Source: Thermoplasmata archaeon (GTDB lineage: Archaea > Thermoplasmatota > Thermoplasmata > Thermoplasmatales > Thermoplasmataceae). Taken from it: 6,077 nucleotides of DNA. Position numbers and translations under genes: made by a program. The stretch covers positions 1 through 6,077 of the forward strand of contig JAKBQK010000574.1 in assembly GCA_021835265.1 (NCBI GenBank), written 5' to 3'. Positions 51 through 6,077 of this stretch are shown here, in pieces. The notes beneath the pieces were generated by a model that worked only from the letters and a program-made list of their open reading frames with translations, did no database searches and was not told the DNA's origin. Each line of letters starts with the position of its first letter. The first letter of the stretch is position 1.

Positions 51-125
51 GCTCCGGTAGTGTAGCCAGGTCAAGCATAAGAGACTCTCAATCTCTCGAC
101 TCGGGTCCAAATCCCGGCCGGAGCA
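51..125 (+). tRNA. tRNA-Glu (anticodon CTC)
   Basis: A complete cloverleaf can be folded by eye. The acceptor stem 51-57/118-124 is seven perfect pairs, followed by discriminator A125. The D stem is 60-63/75-78 with the G18-G19 pair at 69-70. The anticodon stem 80-84/92-96 is five perfect pairs. Loop 85-91 places anticodon CTC at 87-89, which reads GAG (Glu). The variable loop has four bases, and the T stem 101-105/113-117 contains one T-G pair. The acceptor sequence GCTCCGG is typical of archaeal tRNA-Glu. No CCA is encoded and no intron is present. One oddity is the T loop (106-112), which reads TCCAAAT, so position 55 is C instead of the nearly universal T. All other features look functional. 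Confidence 0.95.
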
Positions 126-341: not shown

Positions 342-400
342 TTAAGTTAGGTCTGGTAAATCACTTTCAATTTGATTATTCATTTCTTGATGCATCTTTA
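342..400 (-). other. possible -1 frame extension of the COMM-like gene
   Basis: The COMM-like frame ends ...AAC TCT TAA. Stepping back one base at the TCT codon gives TTA AAG ATG CAT CAA... and stays open for 19 codons (peptide LKMHQEMNNQIESDLPDLT) to TAA at 342-344. The peptide continues the kind of terminal helix that COMM domains have. It could be a recent indel, a sequencing error or programmed frameshifting. There is no canonical slippery heptamer, so the last is least likely. Confidence 0.35.
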
Positions 401-967
401 AGAGTTCTCCATCAGGTAGCTTAGTGACACTATATCGACCTCAAGCTGAAGGTAATAGGCATCGCCAGCTTCATCTGTTTTGAGGTTCATTATACCAATA
501 GGTCCATTTATATTCTTTCGTCCAGTGCTTGATATGGGTTGATCCACTCTCCAGACAAGTTCTGATAAATTAGGAAGCAAGGAAAGTCTTACGTTTGAAA
601 TAACCTCTGAAAAGCGATCGCTATATTTTGTCAAAGAATCCCAACTAAGCTTAGCTCTTTCTTTTTCTATGCTTATGCGAGATAGGTTCTCAATGAAATT
701 ATCCTCTGACGTCTCCCGCGTAAATGACCTCATCAAACTCACATACATTGTGCCAAACGATGTAACCTGAGACCCTTGACCCCTTAACTCTTTTGCAAAC
801 GCCTTGTCTTGGTCAGACAATTTTTTTTCGAGGATTTCATTAGAAAATAGCACCGACTCTACGTATGCGAGTACCTTTTTGAAATGTTCATCATAGAGTT
901 CCATGATCTTTTTGGAGTATCGTTTCAAGAATTTTGGGTACATGAAAGAACTACCAGGACCGTTCAA
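398..967 (-). CDS. COMM-domain-like (COMMD-type) protein
   Basis: This 189-residue protein has a helical N-terminal part (about 1-125) and a C-terminal domain (about 130-189) resembling the COMM domain of eukaryotic COMMD proteins. From memory of human COMMD1, shared positions are the WRVD motif (139-142), a downstream Ser, the I-x-x-P-[IV]-x-I-x-x-L strand (153-162), and a final L-x-LE-x-D-x-V strand (173-180). COMM domains normally end with a longer helix. Here the frame stops early, but the -1 frame continues for about 19 codons with helical, amphipathic sequence to a stop at 342, giving a total near the usual COMMD length. The start is TTG, chosen because GGAGGTGA sits 7 bases upstream. 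The ATG at residue 9 has no such site. It directly follows the 74-residue gene (TAA then TTG), so the two are co-transcribed. In eukaryotes COMMD proteins form the Commander complex in endosomal sorting. The role in an archaeon is unknown. The similarity is unconfirmed. Confidence 0.55.
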   Translation of the reverse strand: MNGPGSSFMYPKFLKRYSKKIMELYDEHFKKVLAYVESVLFSNEILEKKLSDQDKAFAKELRGQGSQVTSFGTMYVSLMRSFTRETSEDNFIENLSRISIEKERAKLSWDSLTKYSDRFSEVISNVRLSLLPNLSELVWRVDQPISSTGRKNINGPIGIMNLKTDEAGDAYYLQLEVDIVSLSYLMENS

Positions 968-1952: not shown

Positions 1953-2255
1953 GTGGTAGCCTCCCCTTTTGGATACATTGTTCTTAATGTTCTCTATCTC
2001 CTTGTCTTTGTTCTTGTTTTTATTATAGGGATTGTTTTTTATATGACCGATAAAAAGAGGCTTGCCCAAAGGATTATTGCTTATCCTTTTGCTGTTCTTG
2101 GAATATTGGGGGCAATATTCTTCGCAGAGGTAGGGATAGTGTCCAATATTATCAGCCTCACCATATTTTTTTCTGTGATTTACATCATATTGTTATTTAT
2201 AGGTATATATGTAATTCGATGGAAGCCAGCTCTGAACAGACGGTCTGATCAGTGA
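1953..2255 (+). CDS. small three-helix membrane protein, 100 aa
   Basis: This is a hydrophobic protein with three predicted membrane helices at about residues 8-30, 41-60 and 65-88. The basic loop TDKKRLAQR (32-40) and the basic tail RWKPALNRR (89-97) both point to the cytoplasm by the positive-inside rule, so the N-terminus would be outside. There is no cleavable signal peptide, enzyme motif or known family that I can name. The GTG start is taken because it coincides with the predicted transcription start. The stop codon TGA (2253-2255) overlaps the GTG start of the next gene as GTGA, which implies translational coupling to the J-domain protein. A cytoplasmic tail next to a cytosolic co-chaperone suggests that the two work at the membrane together, but this is inference from gene order only. 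Confidence 0.75.
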   Translation: MVASPFGYIVLNVLYLLVFVLVFIIGIVFYMTDKKRLAQRIIAYPFAVLGILGAIFFAEVGIVSNIISLTIFFSVIYIILLFIGIYVIRWKPALNRRSDQ

Positions 2256-2947
2256 AGGTGACAAAAGTGGACAAGGTTCCTTTTACAGTTTTTCAGGAGG
2301 CGCAGCTGAATTTTTTCAATAAGTCAGGGGCAGTTACTTTTAAATACGATACTGGAAAGATAGCATCAAGAAGAATAGAATTGTACGTCTATTCTTATTT
2401 TATGACACCTACTCCAAAAAGTGGGAATACTTGGACAATTGAAGGTGCTAAAATTGGGAGTTTTCCCGACATTTATCAAAAAACACTTGGAGTGCACAAT
2501 ATCGCCTGGAAATTTACCAGAGAAAATGTTGAGGAAATAGATCTTCTCCTGGTTTTTATTAAAGGAAATGGCCATTTTGCACGTTCTGAATTCATATGTG
2601 GAGCAAAGACGAGGAGAGAAGATATCTCCAGATTGTTGAGGCCATTGGCATCAGCTGCAAGAGAGTGTGGAATGCCAAAAGACGGTACTGGAATTACTCA
2701 TGTGTACCATGAAGGTACGGCAACTAATGGAAATAATAGGGAGAGACTAAGAAAGGAACCAGATGACGAAAGATACTTCAGGGTGCTGGGCATCATCCCA
2801 ACTACCAACATTGGATTAGTTAAGGCTGCTTATAGAGAACTGGCAAAACAGTTCCATCCGGACACAAATACTGGTATTTCCCAAGACAGAATGAAAGAAA
2901 TAAACGAGGCTTATGAAAAAATTCTTACGAGATTAGAGCTAAAATAG
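2252..2947 (+). CDS. protein with C-terminal J domain (DnaJ-like co-chaperone)
   Basis: Residues about 173-229 form a J domain. They begin ERYFRVLG (173-180), then a helix KAAYRELAKQ (191-200), then the HPD tripeptide at 202-204 that stimulates the Hsp70 ATPase, and a last helix RMKEINEAYEKIL (213-225). J domains recruit DnaK/Hsp70 to a chosen client. The first 140 residues are an unrecognised region of alternating hydrophobic and polar segments, probably beta-rich (for example RRIELYVYSYF at 40-50 and IDLLLVFIKGN at 96-106), ending in a helix. A polar linker (about 143-172) separates the two. There is no Gly/Phe or zinc-finger region, so this is a J-domain-only (class C) protein. It overlaps the upstream membrane-protein gene by 4 bases. 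The start is uncertain. GTG 2252 is the coupled start, but GTG 2267 (residue 6) has GAAGGTGA 5 bases upstream and may be the true one. Confidence 0.85.
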   Translation: MKVTKVDKVPFTVFQEAQLNFFNKSGAVTFKYDTGKIASRRIELYVYSYFMTPTPKSGNTWTIEGAKIGSFPDIYQKTLGVHNIAWKFTRENVEEIDLLLVFIKGNGHFARSEFICGAKTRREDISRLLRPLASAARECGMPKDGTGITHVYHEGTATNGNNRERLRKEPDDERYFRVLGIIPTTNIGLVKAAYRELAKQFHPDTNTGISQDRMKEINEAYEKILTRLELK

Positions 2948-3399: not shown

Positions 3400-3783
3400 A
3401 TGGATTTAACAAGTCTGAATGTAAAAGATAACAAGAATCCGGATAAGAAGTATCTCTGTGAACACACTTTTGCAGAATTGACTGCGGTTTGTCCCGAATC
3501 AAAGTTGCCTGATTTCTATACCATTAAGATTACGTATGAACCAGAGGAAAGTTTGGTGGAACTTAAATCCCTGAAGTATTACTTTTCCTCATTTAGAAAC
3601 ATTGAAATTCTACATGAAGAATTGATTAATAAGATCACAGATGATCTCATAAAATCAATAGAACCAAGACGGATATATGTGGAATTGCAGGTAAATGTTC
3701 GTGGTGGTATTAACACTGTTATCAAGAGAAAGTGGTCTAAAACAAATGGGGATGAAGATATCTTTACATCAAACCCTACATGA
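3400..3783 (+). CDS. queF: QueF-family NADPH-dependent 7-cyano-7-deazaguanine reductase
   Basis: QueF reduces the nitrile of preQ0 to the aminomethyl group of preQ1 using two NADPH, through a covalent thioimide. This 127-residue protein is the short, unimodal form. The catalytic Cys is C31 in TAVCPES and the acid Asp is D38 in LPDF. The QueF signature E-[SL]-K-[SA]-x-K-[LY]-[YW] appears as ELKSLKYY (54-61), followed by SSFRN (63-67), the substrate-binding His-Glu pair at 72-73 and RGGI at 101-104. The related archaeal amidinotransferase QueF-L, which makes archaeosine, is reported to lack this NADPH-linked signature, so a true reductase is favoured here, though not proven. The C-terminus (after about 113) is short and degenerate. 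It is the first gene of an operon with the TGT-like gene 14 bases downstream. In an archaeon, which needs archaeosine rather than queuosine in tRNA, a preQ1-making enzyme suggests a use outside tRNA. Confidence 0.85.
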   Translation: MDLTSLNVKDNKNPDKKYLCEHTFAELTAVCPESKLPDFYTIKITYEPEESLVELKSLKYYFSSFRNIEILHEELINKITDDLIKSIEPRRIYVELQVNVRGGINTVIKRKWSKTNGDEDIFTSNPT

Positions 3784-3797
3784 CGAGATGATAAGGA

Positions 3798-4805
3798 ATG
3801 GAAGTGGATATTAAATACAAAAGTAGCAACCTGTCACGAATGGCTGTTGTAAGGATCGGCGATAAAGAGTTGGTAACTCCAGCATATTTTCCAGCTATAT
3901 CAAGTCTCCAACCCTTTGATGTTAAAGAGTTGTTTGATTTCATTATTGAAAAGAAATATGGTAAAATGTTACTCTCTTCATATGATATAAATAAGGATGA
4001 ACGCTTGCATGAAAATAAGTCGGTCGGTGAAGTAAGCCAATATTCTCGAACTGGAAATTTTGTGATGATGGATTCCGGTGTTTTCGAGAGTTATTGGAAG
4101 AGTGATAAAACCTGGACATTTAAGGAATATAGAGATACTTTGGAAAAAGTAGATGCTGATTTTTATGCTACATTTGATTTTTCCCCTAATATTCTACCTA
4201 GAGAGCTTGATCTATATTCTGAGTTGATAACGAGAATTAGGGAATCACGCGATGTGATAACAAACGGCGTACCCCTAGAGATACTTCATGGCAGAACACC
4301 AGAAGAGCTTATAGGCATCGTTTCAAAATACGCATCTTCACTGGGAAATGAACAAAGCAGAATAATTGCAATTCCTGAGCGAGAATGCGGAGCTTCAGTG
4401 TTAGAAAGAGGAAGAAACATAATGCAAATAACACACAAGCTCAGAGAAAGGAGCGAAAAATTTCTATTGCATATCCTTGGATGTGGAAACCCGATTTCAA
4501 TGGCATTATATGCTTATTGCGGTGCTGATACCTTTGATAGTATAGATTGGACTAGCAACATCTTTGAAAAGAATGAGAATAAGATTTTTGACTTTTCACA
4601 ATTGGACCTTATCGGATGCCACTGTGAGGCTTGCTCAATGGAAGAAAAATCTTATATCAATCGGGCACTACTTCACAATTTATTATTTTACCAGCAGCAT
4701 GTTGAAAAACTGCAGTACATGATTAAAGAATGTACGTTAAAAGACTACGTGCAAGTGTACCTCGGAACTCCTTTATTCAGGCAGTTAGAAGAATCAATTA
4801 TCTAA
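3798..4805 (+). CDS. divergent TGT-family transglycosylase (DpdA/Cap10-like)
   Basis: This 335-residue protein belongs to the tRNA-guanine transglycosylase superfamily, which swaps guanine for a 7-deazaguanine base. Visible landmarks are a conserved N-terminal strand with TPAYFPA (27-33), MMDSGVF (90-96) corresponding to the active-site DSGGFQ region with D92 as candidate base, LHILGCGNP (224-231), GADTFDSIDW (242-251) matching the nucleophile loop with D247 as candidate nucleophile, and a zinc site C274-x-C276-x2-C279 with H293 in RALLHNLLF. The stretch between the last Cys and the His is 13 residues, shorter than the roughly 25 of ordinary TGTs, and there is no PUA or other RNA-binding domain as in archaeal arcTGT. 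That favours a specialised paralog such as DpdA, which acts on DNA, or the type IV CBASS protein Cap10. The start is unsure. AAGGA abuts ATG 3798 but lies 6 bases before GTG 3804, which may be the real start. It is co-transcribed with queF, and its stop lies 2 bases from the convergent minus-strand gene. Confidence 0.8.
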   Translation: MEVDIKYKSSNLSRMAVVRIGDKELVTPAYFPAISSLQPFDVKELFDFIIEKKYGKMLLSSYDINKDERLHENKSVGEVSQYSRTGNFVMMDSGVFESYWKSDKTWTFKEYRDTLEKVDADFYATFDFSPNILPRELDLYSELITRIRESRDVITNGVPLEILHGRTPEELIGIVSKYASSLGNEQSRIIAIPERECGASVLERGRNIMQITHKLRERSEKFLLHILGCGNPISMALYAYCGADTFDSIDWTSNIFEKNENKIFDFSQLDLIGCHCEACSMEEKSYINRALLHNLLFYQQHVEKLQYMIKECTLKDYVQVYLGTPLFRQLEESII

Positions 4806-4807
4806 TC

Positions 4808-5014
4808 TTATAGTCTTGAAACTTTTTCCTTAAGTTCTAAAATTTTTATATATTGCATTAATGCATAGTTGGCCACATCTGCAAGCTCCTCCTCAATTTG
4901 CTCGAATAAATCTAACCTTTTGTATCTATCTCCATATAACTCGTTACCAGTATCCAGTCTGGCGTAGCAGAGCTTAAAGAATTTTTCCAAATATTCCTTC
5001 ATCTTTGGTTCCAT
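4808..5014 (-). CDS. MazG-like small helical protein, 68 aa
   Basis: This short all-helical protein has a YGDRYKR segment (27-33) followed by EQIEEELADVANYAL (38-52). The E-E-x-x-D/NY pattern is that of the metal-binding helix of MazG-like all-alpha NTP pyrophosphohydrolases, which hydrolyse non-canonical or excess (d)NTPs. Small phage and bacterial proteins with a YGD...EEL-x-D-x-ANY layout, of unknown function, look similar. At 68 residues it is shorter than a full MazG domain (about 100) and would need to dimerise. It starts at ATG 5014 with no obvious ribosome binding site. TTTAAAAA on the minus strand (5046-5053) could be its TATA box. It is convergent with the TGT-like gene (2-base gap) and divergent from the glycosylase gene, so it splits the deazaguanine cluster in two. 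Whether it polices a modified nucleotide pool is speculation. Confidence 0.6.
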   Translation of the reverse strand: MEPKMKEYLEKFFKLCYARLDTGNELYGDRYKRLDLFEQIEEELADVANYALMQYIKILELKEKVSRL

Positions 5015-5124
5015 AGAATATGCCTACGTTTGATTTCTTTAATCGTTTTTAAATGCATTTCTTCCTTATAATTTTATATGAGCGATGTAAAATTTTATGT
5101 ACACAATGGTGGTTGAACTTATAA
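5015..5124. promoter_or_regulatory. divergent promoter region, MazG-like gene / glycosylase operon
   Basis: For the plus strand, the 10-bp palindrome TAAAATTTTA (5088-5097), continuing as ATTTTATG, lies about 30 bases before ATG 5125, giving another near-leaderless transcript. For the minus strand, TTTAAAAA (5046-5053) lies about 35 bases before the MazG-like start. A second TATA-like stretch, TTATAATTTTATA (5067-5079), sits between them and could serve either side. The repeated AATTTTAT elements may also bind a regulator. Confidence 0.5.
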
Positions 5125-5835
5125 ATGCAGAATATTGCAGATTCAGGAGATATTGAGGTTAGGATTAGACTGCTATTAGGCCAATTCCCAAATTCATTGA
5201 GGCTTAACACACCTTATAAGTATTGGTTACGAATGTGTGACAATAGATTATGGGAAGAAATCGTTCTCTGCATATTATCTAGTAATATAAATTTCGAAAC
5301 TGCCTATTCAGCACTATTGCAATTAATCAATCGAGAACTTATAGACTACAATTCCTTTACAGAAATTACCCCAGATAGAATTCTCAAAGAATTGAGGAGG
5401 TCTATTTATCTACCAAAAAAAAGAAACGATGAGTTTAGGGTGTATAGATATCCCAGTTTGCGGGCAAAACATCTGTATAAGTCAGGGTTGGTGATTAGAG
5501 ATAGATATGGCGGACTTCATATCCTCTTGGCCGAATTCGATGAAATCGATGAACTCAGAGCCGAAATTGTAAGATTTCTACCAGGAATTGGAATGAAAGA
5601 GGCCTCAATGTTTTTGAAAAATATTGGTTTCTCTGATCGATTGGCCGTATTGGATAGTCATGTAATGAGATTTTTGTTCCCAGATTTCTACTCGCACAAC
5701 CAAAAAAGAATTCTTTCTCAAAAAGCATATCTTAATGTTGAAAGGAAATTTCTCGATTTATCCGATAAGATTGGAATTTCACCTAGGTTGCTTGATAGCT
5801 TGCTATGGCATTATGCTAGGGAGGGAACGTATTGA
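5125..5835 (+). CDS. Ogg2-type 8-oxoguanine DNA glycosylase/AP lyase (OGG/Cap11-like)
   Basis: This 236-residue protein is an HhH-GPD superfamily base-excision enzyme. The helix-hairpin-helix LPGIGMKEASMFLKNIG (152-168) carries the candidate catalytic lysine K158 in the GMKEAS context typical of the archaeal/bacterial Ogg2 family. The downstream catalytic aspartate is D177 in AVLDSHV. An upstream LCILSSN segment (48-54) and the C-terminal LLDSLLWHYAREG (222-234) also match the family layout. Length is slightly above the usual 205-215. Such enzymes flip out and cleave an oxidised purine and nick the strand through a Schiff base. With both catalytic residues kept it should be active. It starts at ATG 5125, near-leaderless. 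Its TGA overlaps the TTG of queC (TTGA) and its last codons supply queC's ribosome binding site, so the two are coupled. OGG beside TGT and QueC is the ancillary trio of type IV CBASS (this member is called Cap11). The alternative is removal of a modified or unmodified guanine in a DNA-modification system. Confidence 0.8.
   Translation: MQNIADSGDIEVRIRLLLGQFPNSLRLNTPYKYWLRMCDNRLWEEIVLCILSSNINFETAYSALLQLINRELIDYNSFTEITPDRILKELRRSIYLPKKRNDEFRVYRYPSLRAKHLYKSGLVIRDRYGGLHILLAEFDEIDELRAEIVRFLPGIGMKEASMFLKNIGFSDRLAVLDSHVMRFLFPDFYSHNQKRILSQKAYLNVERKFLDLSDKIGISPRLLDSLLWHYAREGTY
5818..5826 (+). promoter_or_regulatory. strong ribosome binding site deciding the TTG start of queC
   Basis: AGGGAGGGA ends 5 bases before TTG 5832 and lies within the last codons of the glycosylase gene. 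It supports the TTG start, which gives the PP-loop protein its normal short N-terminus. Confidence 0.75.
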
Positions 5836-6077
5836 AGGTTGTATGTTTAGTATCGGGGGGACTTGATTCCTCATCAATGATGCTTTTACTGAAAAAGTAT
5901 GGTTATGAAATTTATCCACTACACATTAATTATGGCCATAGAGCAGAAGAAAAAGAGTGGAACTCTTGCCAGAGAATTGCTGATGTAATTGATTCAAACA
6001 AACCGCATAAAATCGATATTTTTGGATTAGAAGTCATTCATAGTAGTTTGTTAAATGATAATTTGGATATGGTTAAG
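5832..6077 (+). CDS. QueC-family 7-deazaguanine synthase (Cap9-like), 3' truncated by window
   Basis: Only the first 82 codons are present. The protein opens with the ATP pyrophosphatase PP-loop VSGGLDSSS (7-15). It continues with PLHINYGHRAEEKEW (29-43), the counterpart of the (D/N)YGQRH-x-E segment of QueC. Canonical QueC uses ATP and ammonia to turn 7-carboxy-7-deazaguanine into preQ0. QueC relatives in immune systems include Cap9 of type IV CBASS and QatC. Cap9 is reported to conjugate the deazaguanine to a protein instead of making preQ0. The zinc-binding Cys cluster that separates a complete QueC from variants would lie beyond the window, so the choice cannot be made here. The TTG start overlaps the glycosylase stop by TTGA. 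A QueF-like reductase in the same cluster would consume the preQ0 that a true QueC makes. Confidence 0.85.
   Translation, partial: MKVVCLVSGGLDSSSMMLLLKKYGYEIYPLHINYGHRAEEKEWNSCQRIADVIDSNKPHKIDIFGLEVIHSSLLNDNLDMVK

What the first reader, a model, noticed from the sequence alone, without database searches (positions are those of the whole stretch)
3400..6077. 7-deazaguanine cluster: type IV CBASS-like trio plus QueF
Seen: QueF-family, TGT-family, MazG-like, Ogg2-type and QueC-family genes lie together, with glycosylase and queC overlapping by 4 bases. Known: QueC (Cap9), TGT (Cap10) and OGG (Cap11) are the ancillary genes that define type IV CBASS, while TGT-like DpdA plus deazaguanine synthesis genes mark DNA-modification systems. 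An added QueF is not part of the type IV CBASS set as I know it. Inference: either an archaeal CBASS variant whose CD-NTase and effector lie past 6077, or a new arrangement in which preQ1 goes into DNA and an active glycosylase polices it.
Basis: partly seen in the sequence, partly recalled or inferred. Interest (0 to 1): 0.88.

Follow-up and report, generated by a model that had tools for sequence, protein, structure and literature searches.

The report
Deazaguanine-tagging TIR immune operon, cut short
This archaeal gene cluster looks like the left half of an antiviral operon in which enzymes borrowed from tRNA-base chemistry probably attach a modified base to the tip of a TIR signalling protein, a sister of a recently described bacterial immune system that does this to a different kind of protein.

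Summary
The genes are real: QueF (3400-3783), TGT-like (3798-4805), Ogg-like (5125-5835) and a truncated QueC (5832-6077, 4-base overlap). The 68-aa MazG-like ORF is doubtful. The TGT parts from housekeeping arcTGT/Tgt with 100/100 support, on the side of CBASS Cap10. All seven archaeal genome loci found (L001-L007) read TGT-OGG-QueC-TIR-8xMP: a ThsB-type TIR protein with a glycine-rich tail, then a membrane protein; no CD-NTase lies there. The two bacterial type IV CBASS CD-NTases examined begin MGGSGGG, as the TIR tails nearly do. In a tree the window's 82-residue QueC falls inside the TIR-associated clade (97/92), sister of Cap9; its best match is L002, the one archaeal locus that also has QueF directly before TGT. 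QueF was found in 1 of 250 genomes of that phylum: the L002 genome. Best reading: an archaeal immune operon in which QueC conjugates a 7-deazaguanine to a TIR protein's N-terminus. The TIR gene would lie past the window's end, so this is inferred; no reaction is shown. A CD-NTase version is unlikely; preQ1-in-DNA has no support. My searches of an open-access library found no report of it.

The parts
3400..3783 (+). QueF-II type nitrile reductase (127 aa); C31, P37-D38 and the motif ELKSLKYY (54-61) present; 14 bases before TGT
   Evidence: 57% identical over 113 residues to the QueF before TGT in L002; five further pairs of QueF/TGT homologues share a contig length
3798..4805 (+). TGT-like protein of the Cap10 kind (335 aa); D92, D127, D247 and zinc-type ligands C274, C276, C279, H293 kept
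5125..5835 (+). Ogg-HhH DNA glycosylase-like protein (236 aa), catalytic-type K158 and D177 present
5832..6077 (+). QueC-family ligase of the TIR-associated, Cap9-related clade, first 82 residues only; SGGLDS and YGHRAEEKE; TTG start overlapping OGG by 4 bases
4808..5014 (-). 68-aa ORF with a weak MazG/DUF1599 likeness; not part of the conserved operon, may not be a gene

Best explanation
The right half of the window is the left part of an archaeal immune operon: QueF - TGT - OGG - QueC - [TIR with glycine-rich tail - 8xMP], the bracketed genes being predicted past base 6077 from relatives. By analogy with type IV CBASS (Cap9/CdnD, published), the QueC-like enzyme activates 7-carboxy-7-deazaguanine (CDG) with ATP and couples it to the N-terminus, mostly glycine, of the ThsB-type TIR protein (inferred). 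The TGT-like protein binds that tagged tail in its base pocket, as Cap10 does with CdnD (inferred from kinship and kept pocket residues). The OGG-like protein is probably catalytically able and acts on an N-glycosidic bond of unknown identity (inferred). On infection the licensed TIR makes an NAD-derived signal that opens the 8xMP membrane effector (inferred from TIR and Thoeris biology). QueF probably removes free preQ0, a competing base for the TGT pocket, in archaea that otherwise lack it; most bacteria found with these operons have a housekeeping QueF (inferred). Shown here by sequence: gene content, order, kinship, tail likeness and recurrence of QueF. Not shown: any reaction or any defence.
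For: Gene order TGT-OGG-QueC-ThsB_TIR-8xMP in 7 of 7 archaeal loci L001-L007 (8xMP on the other strand in L002), with TIR and 8xMP over the Pfam cut-off in 7 of 7. TIR tails: 10 of 11 aligned proteins begin MG; 77 of the 120 listed homologues begin MG. Both type IV CBASS CD-NTases examined begin MGGSGGG. 19 contig lengths are shared between the 120 listed TGT and 118 entered TIR contig lengths, against a chance mean of 0.96 and maximum of 3. Window QueC: inside the TIR-associated clade 97/92; 18 of 18 QueCs of that clade outscore both Cap9s and every listed housekeeping QueC, best L002 at 66.7 bits. TGT: 31 defence-type rows against 8 housekeeping rows, 100/100. QueF: 5 QueF/TGT contig lengths shared (chance mean 0.24, maximum 2), two of these also shared with TIR; L002 has QueF 5 bases before TGT in the operon that holds TIR; QueF in 1 of 250 genomes of that phylum, the L002 genome. 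All 13 plasmids with the TGT have a TIR match that reaches into the tail (tail read in four). Published chemistry: abstract of PMC11996544; sections of PMC13279940.
Against: The window ends inside QueC, so TIR, 8xMP and the DQ motif are not seen in it. Its closest TGT relatives (P0002-P0005) share no contig length with the listed TIR proteins. By single-sequence search the window TGT scores higher to P. horikoshii arcTGT (40.5 bits) than to Cap10 (28 bits); a profile gives 54.6 and 54.9. QueF reaches its cut-off in only 1 of 7 archaeal genomes with the operon. 16 of 120 TIR homologues begin MS and 4 MA (13 MSGG, 4 MAGG), so glycine is not always residue 2. QueCs of this clade have DQ where Cap9 and canonical QueC have DC, so the substrate could differ from CDG. 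Three of the 18 clade members (L008-L010) have a small MGG protein not shown to be a TIR. No antiviral activity is shown for this branch by any search.
Confidence: 0.66

Rival explanations
1. An archaeal type IV CBASS: the missing right side encodes an MGG-tailed CD-NTase and its effector, with QueC conjugating CDG to the CD-NTase as published for Cap9.
For: TGT and QueC match PADLOC's CBASS models; two type IV CBASS loci (L028, L090) have QueC, TGT and an MGGSGGG CD-NTase.
Against: No CD-NTase follows QueC in 7 of 7 archaeal relatives; SMODS over the cut-off in 0 of 10 relatives' genomes; window QueC scores 19.4 and 14.5 bits to the two Cap9s against 30 to 67 to the TIR-associated clade; CBASS order differs (QueC before TGT, CD-NTase directly after TGT).
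Confidence: 0.14
2. A DNA-modification system in which preQ1 made by QueF is placed in DNA by the TGT-like enzyme and policed by the glycosylase.
For: QueF, TGT and an Ogg with kept K158/D177 lie together.
Against: TGT does not group with phage 9g's transglycosylase (one long-branch sequence) but with Cap10; no FolE, QueD or QueE among the window proteins scanned; relatives carry TIR and membrane-protein genes and mostly lack QueF.
Confidence: 0.05
3. Housekeeping tRNA modification genes (archaeosine or queuosine) that happen to lie together.
Against: Separate TGTs of 239-288 bits to PF01702 exist in 5 of 7 archaeal relatives' genomes; separate QueCs over 130 bits in 5 of 7, and two divergent QueC-like copies in a sixth; 100/100 split from housekeeping TGT.
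Confidence: 0.03
4. TIR operon as in the best explanation, but QueF and QueC make a different tag (for example from preQ0 or preQ1), or QueF is only a passenger.
For: DQ for the DC of Cap9 in 17 of 18 QueCs of the clade; QueF in a minority of operons.
Confidence: 0.12

Closest known systems
Type IV CBASS (Cap9/Cap10/Cap11 with CD-NTase)
   Same: QueC-like and TGT-like proteins of one clade apart from housekeeping enzymes; MGG-tailed partner protein; an OGG-like gene and a hydrophobic, probably membrane, protein nearby in L028
   Different: Partner in all seven archaeal relatives is a ThsB-type TIR, not a CD-NTase; QueC carries DQ, not DC; archaeal TGT keeps zinc-type cysteines that the two CBASS TGTs lack; OGG keeps a lysine that the OGG-like protein of L028 lacks by alignment, a protein with no Pfam match
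Thoeris
   Same: ThsB-type TIR protein (PF08937) with an invariant W-E pair in the 11 aligned; type II Thoeris also disrupts the membrane (passage of PMC12948488)
   Different: QueC, TGT, OGG and the glycine tail; 8xMP (archaea) or a SLATT-type protein (some rhizobial plasmids) beside it instead of ThsA
qatABCD
   Same: QueC-family enzyme with a partner that needs an N-terminal glycine motif (PMC13279940, sections read)
   Different: QatC is about 400 aa with extensions (PMC13329287); here QueC is 195-216 aa in relatives; the archaeal operons hold TIR and 8xMP instead of QatA, QatB, QatD
Dpd DNA-modification systems
   Same: TGT-family enzyme and deazaguanine genes
   Different: TGT not with phage 9g's transglycosylase; no preQ0 synthesis set in the window

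Membership tests
Type IV CBASS | CD-NTase gene in the operon, window itself | not testable with these tools
   window ends at 6077 inside QueC; no whole genome held
Type IV CBASS | CD-NTase gene in the operon, archaeal relatives | tested here: not met
   7 of 7 loci have ThsB_TIR and 8xMP after QueC; PF18144 over cut-off in 0 of 10 relatives' genomes
Type IV CBASS | Cap9-like QueC | tested here: inconclusive
   in one clade with Cap9 (97/92) but inside the TIR-associated sister clade (97/92), on 82 residues
Type IV CBASS | Cap10-like TGT | tested here: met
   100/100 split from housekeeping TGTs with both CBASS TGTs on its side; order inside that side is weak; PADLOC TGT 79.2 bits
Type IV CBASS | Cap11-like OGG | tested here: inconclusive
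   Ogg-HhH present; PADLOC gave no match; of two CBASS loci, L028 has an OGG-like gene by alignment only (no Pfam match) and L090 shows none beside the trio
Thoeris | ThsB-type TIR protein (relatives) | tested here: met
   PF08937 over cut-off in 7 of 7 archaeal loci
Thoeris | ThsA effector (relatives) | tested here: not met
   the adjacent gene is 8xMP PF24838 in 7 of 7; ThsA was not searched for elsewhere in the genomes
qatABCD | long QatC with extensions | tested here: not met
   relatives' QueC 195-216 aa; window copy truncated
Archaeal housekeeping TGT | groups inside arcTGT | tested here: not met
   100/100; TIGR00432 48.6 bits against cut-off 350
Dpd DNA modification | TGT of the DpdA kind | tested here: inconclusive
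   one phage sequence only, long branch, falls with housekeeping TGTs 96/95
Protein deazaguanylation | NDG on the partner's N-terminus | not testable with these tools
   needs mass spectrometry

The most novel reading that the evidence does not exclude
The protein-bound 7-deazaguanine should keep its glycosidic nitrogen free (from recalled chemistry), so the TGT-like enzyme, whose three catalytic-type aspartates are kept, may exchange it for a guanine in invader or tRNA nucleic acid, covalently tethering the TIR protein to nucleic acid; the OGG-like enzyme, with its catalytic-type lysine kept, would cut the link. The operon would then be a write-and-erase system for protein-nucleic acid conjugates that switches TIR signalling.
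Probability: 0.1. Interest if true: 0.96.

Novelty: new variant of a known kind. Interest (0 to 1): 0.83.

Why it matters
If right, attaching a nucleobase to a protein's N-terminus is a shared switch in prokaryotic immunity that has been coupled to at least three unrelated kinds of partner (CD-NTase, probably QatB, and TIR), in archaea as well as bacteria. It would link Thoeris-type signalling to deazaguanine chemistry, and would make the open questions of what Cap10 and the glycosylase do directly testable in operons whose TGT and OGG keep their catalytic-type residues. QueF gives a handle on how the chemistry coexists with archaeosine synthesis.

Tried and rejected

Rows left out of counts: A1 used 18 of the 120 listed TGT homologues and the trees 14 of them plus the window and loci. 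L006, L020, L021 and L030 TGTs and the empty row L075 were not in the TGT trees; the DpdA row was dropped; the window QueC was left out and added; phage 9g QueC was left out of both QueC trees. In the contig-length test P0151 (QueF) and P0231 (TIR) had no length, and one TIR length (992, P0260) was left out by oversight; it has no counterpart in the other lists. The test rests on equal lengths, not on reading the contigs; of the 19 TIR/TGT lengths, 7092 is locus L001 itself, which was read. In one search my ORF picker missed the QueC and TIR of L030; and one search show both. In one search the G002 TGT match is marked with one TAA; the L002 ORF used here (9977-10966) is open and I did not look further.
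Full report
Observation. The four main genes are present and read in one direction: QueF 3400-3783, TGT-like 3798-4805, Ogg-like 5125-5835 and QueC from 5832 to the end. Family scores are far above chance. QueF reaches the preQ1 synthase cut-off (122 against 86.9 bits) and keeps C31, D38 and ELKSLKYY at 54-61; that this motif marks NADPH-dependent nitrile reductases rather than archaeal QueF-like amidinotransferases is recalled. The TGT-like protein misses the arcTGT cut-off widely (48.6 against 350 bits) but matches PADLOC's CBASS TGT (79.2 bits). The minus-strand MazG-like ORF is weak and lies in a 319-base gap that is -23 to 64 bases in relatives, so I leave it out.

Relatives. A search of 5.8 billion proteins gave 165 TGT relatives, 120 listed. 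An 18-row alignment (A1) found 10 loci among species genomes: seven archaeal (Thorarchaeota, Nitrososphaerota, Thermoplasmata and archaea without a closer name) and three rhizobial. The type is rare: 3 of 398, 2 of 300 and 1 of 389 genomes (plus two weak matches) in three phylum samples that overlap in part. In all seven archaeal loci the order is TGT-OGG-QueC-TIR-8xMP. The fourth gene scores 52.8 to 71.8 bits to ThsB_TIR (cut-off 21.2) and the fifth 96 to 124 bits to 8xMP (cut-off 30). L002 also has a QueF 5 bases before TGT, 57% identical to the window's over 113 residues; its 8xMP gene is on the other strand. The three rhizobial loci have a 142-143 aa MGG protein after QueC; the two scanned (L008, L010) have no Pfam family over its cut-off (L009 read).

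Bacterial branch. On plasmids, 13 records carry a TGT relative, 10 of them Rhizobium plasmids with hits at 26-27% identity that are probably not independent. Four were read: PfkB - TIR::TGT fusion - OGG - QueC - MGG-tailed TIR, then in two of the four a SLATT-type (DUF4231) protein and another TIR (Pfam for L018 and L019). The same 13 records are the 13 top rows of the search with an archaeal TIR, with matches from query residue 22-25, inside the tail; the 7 other rows listed start at residue 38 or later, and 42 of 62 records are not listed, some of which may reach the tail too. Of 289 genomes sampled from the class of the Mesorhizobium genome, 4 had the CBASS-type TGT: L028 is a type IV CBASS with SMODS at 46.4 bits; L029, L030 and L031 are the TIR type.

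The shared tail. The L028 CD-NTase begins MGGSGGGSY (taking the ATG one codon inside the ORF) and the cyanobacterial CBASS one (L090) MGGSGGGFF. Tails of the TIR partners begin MGGGSGG, MGGGGGG and the like; 10 of 11 aligned begin MG. Of 3277 TIR homologues 120 are listed, and of these 77 begin MG, 16 MS and 4 MA. The six other TIR proteins printed from the plasmid loci lack such a tail. The abstract of PMC11996544 states that Cap10 binds the modified N-terminus of the CD-NTase; PMC13279940 (introduction, first part of results, and discussion read) states that Cap9 joins CDG to the N-terminal glycine and that QatB needs an N-terminal glycine motif. The tail therefore predicts the acceptor here; the reaction is not shown.

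Kinship. The TGT tree (39 rows) parts 31 defence-type sequences, window included, from 8 housekeeping ones with 100/100; the order inside is weak (archaeal group 48/57), so I do not claim which partner type is older. An earlier tree with phage 9g's transglycosylase put that with housekeeping TGTs (96/95), on a long branch. Sequence alone is less clear: by single-sequence search the window TGT is nearer arcTGT than Cap10 (40.5 against 28 bits), by profile they are equal (54.6 and 54.9). All defence-type TGTs keep D92, D127 and D247 of the window numbering; the archaeal ones also keep C274, C276, C279 and H293, which the bacterial ones lose in part or whole. The QueC tree makes 18 QueCs one clade (97/92), sister of two Cap9s, apart from 12 housekeeping QueCs (98/93). 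Fifteen of the 18 lie before a tailed TIR; the other three (L008-L010) before the small MGG protein. With the window's 82 residues added, the window falls in that clade (97/92); its scores are 30 to 67 bits to all 18, 19.4 and 14.5 to the Cap9s and at most 18.2 to housekeeping ones. This is the most direct evidence from the window itself that a TIR, not a CD-NTase, follows. The DC described for QueC and Cap9 in PMC13329287 (section 4 read) is DQ in 17 of the 18 (DA in L007) and DC in both CBASS copies; the window ends before it.

QueF. Contig lengths listed for QueF and TGT homologues coincide five times (1843, 3614, 11660, 15699, 17171) against a chance mean of 0.24 and maximum of 2; 11660 and 17171 also occur among TIR homologues, and 6079 for QueF and TIR. 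If the 1843-base contig is one contig, it can only hold the two genes side by side. QueF reaches its cut-off in 1 of 250 genomes sampled from the L002 phylum, the L002 genome itself, and in 1 of 7 archaeal against 6 of 7 bacterial genomes with these operons or type IV CBASS. I infer that QueF removes free preQ0, which archaea make for archaeosine (recalled) and which would compete for the TGT pocket; bacteria mostly already have QueF. Other readings, a different tag or a passenger, are kept as rivals; most archaeal operons do without QueF, which this idea does not explain.

Mechanism and limits. Best reading: CDG plus ATP, QueC-like enzyme, tag on the TIR N-terminus; TGT-like partner holds the tagged tail; TIR then signals to the 8xMP membrane protein. 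CDG supply from the housekeeping pathway is plausible (sub-cut-off QueE-like matches on the same contig as the housekeeping QueC in G003-G005) but not proven. The glycosylase keeps K158 and D177, as do 16 of 16 copies of this branch, window included, while the OGG-like protein of the L028 CBASS lacks the lysine by alignment, so this branch is the better place to learn what it cuts. The window TGT model is good (pLDDT 90.1) but its best structural matches, Cap10 and arcTGT, are tied.

Literature. I searched for TIR with QueC, deazaguanine, Thoeris, SLATT, Cap9/Cap10 and 'deazaguanylation' and recognised no report of a TIR partner in the listings; PMC13279940 and PMC13329287 contain neither 'TIR' nor 'Thoeris' in their main text. 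The library lacks most subscription journals. PMC13329287 describes a QueC cluster 4 in Proteobacteria with PfkB neighbours and no settled function; the rhizobial plasmid QueCs here also have a PfkB neighbour (PF00294 39.5 bits in L018) and may belong to it, but the published cysteine motif differs, so this is only a lead. Only the abstract of PMC11996544 was available; its full text may mention related operons.

Noticed in passing
L018 6575-7978, L019 6662-8062, L020 6575-7978, L021 6584-7984: TIR domain fused to the N-terminus of the TGT-like protein on rhizobial plasmids; a second, unfused TIR with an MGG tail follows QueC.
   Followed up: partly
L008 12246-12674, L009 12246-12674, L010 5237-5668: Small MGG-tailed proteins after QueC without a Pfam family over its cut-off in the two scanned; predicted Rossmann-like fold for L008, possibly a further kind of acceptor.
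   Followed up: partly
L040 4062-9939: An IMG/VR viral or proviral contig of 82,665 bases carries a PfkB-like gene - TIR::TGT - OGG - QueC - MGG-TIR run with a DUF4231-like and a TIR-like gene after it on the other strand (read by eye).
   Followed up: partly
L018 5375-6508 and L031 5209-6387: PfkB-type carbohydrate kinase gene directly before TIR::TGT; possible link to the unexplained QueC cluster 4 of PMC13329287.
   Followed up: no
window 51-125: tRNA-Glu (CTC) gene at the left edge; no duplicated 3' end within the window.
   Followed up: yes
window 2252-2947: 231-aa protein with a C-terminal DnaJ domain (39.9 bits), N-terminal part without a Pfam match over its cut-off.
   Followed up: no
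window 398-967: 189-aa minus-strand ORF with weak COMM-domain (below cut-off) and Csn2 matches, most likely chance.
   Followed up: no
P0242: A tailed TIR homologue (MAGG start) named as from Candidatus Brocadia, so the TIR type may reach Planctomycetes.
   Followed up: no
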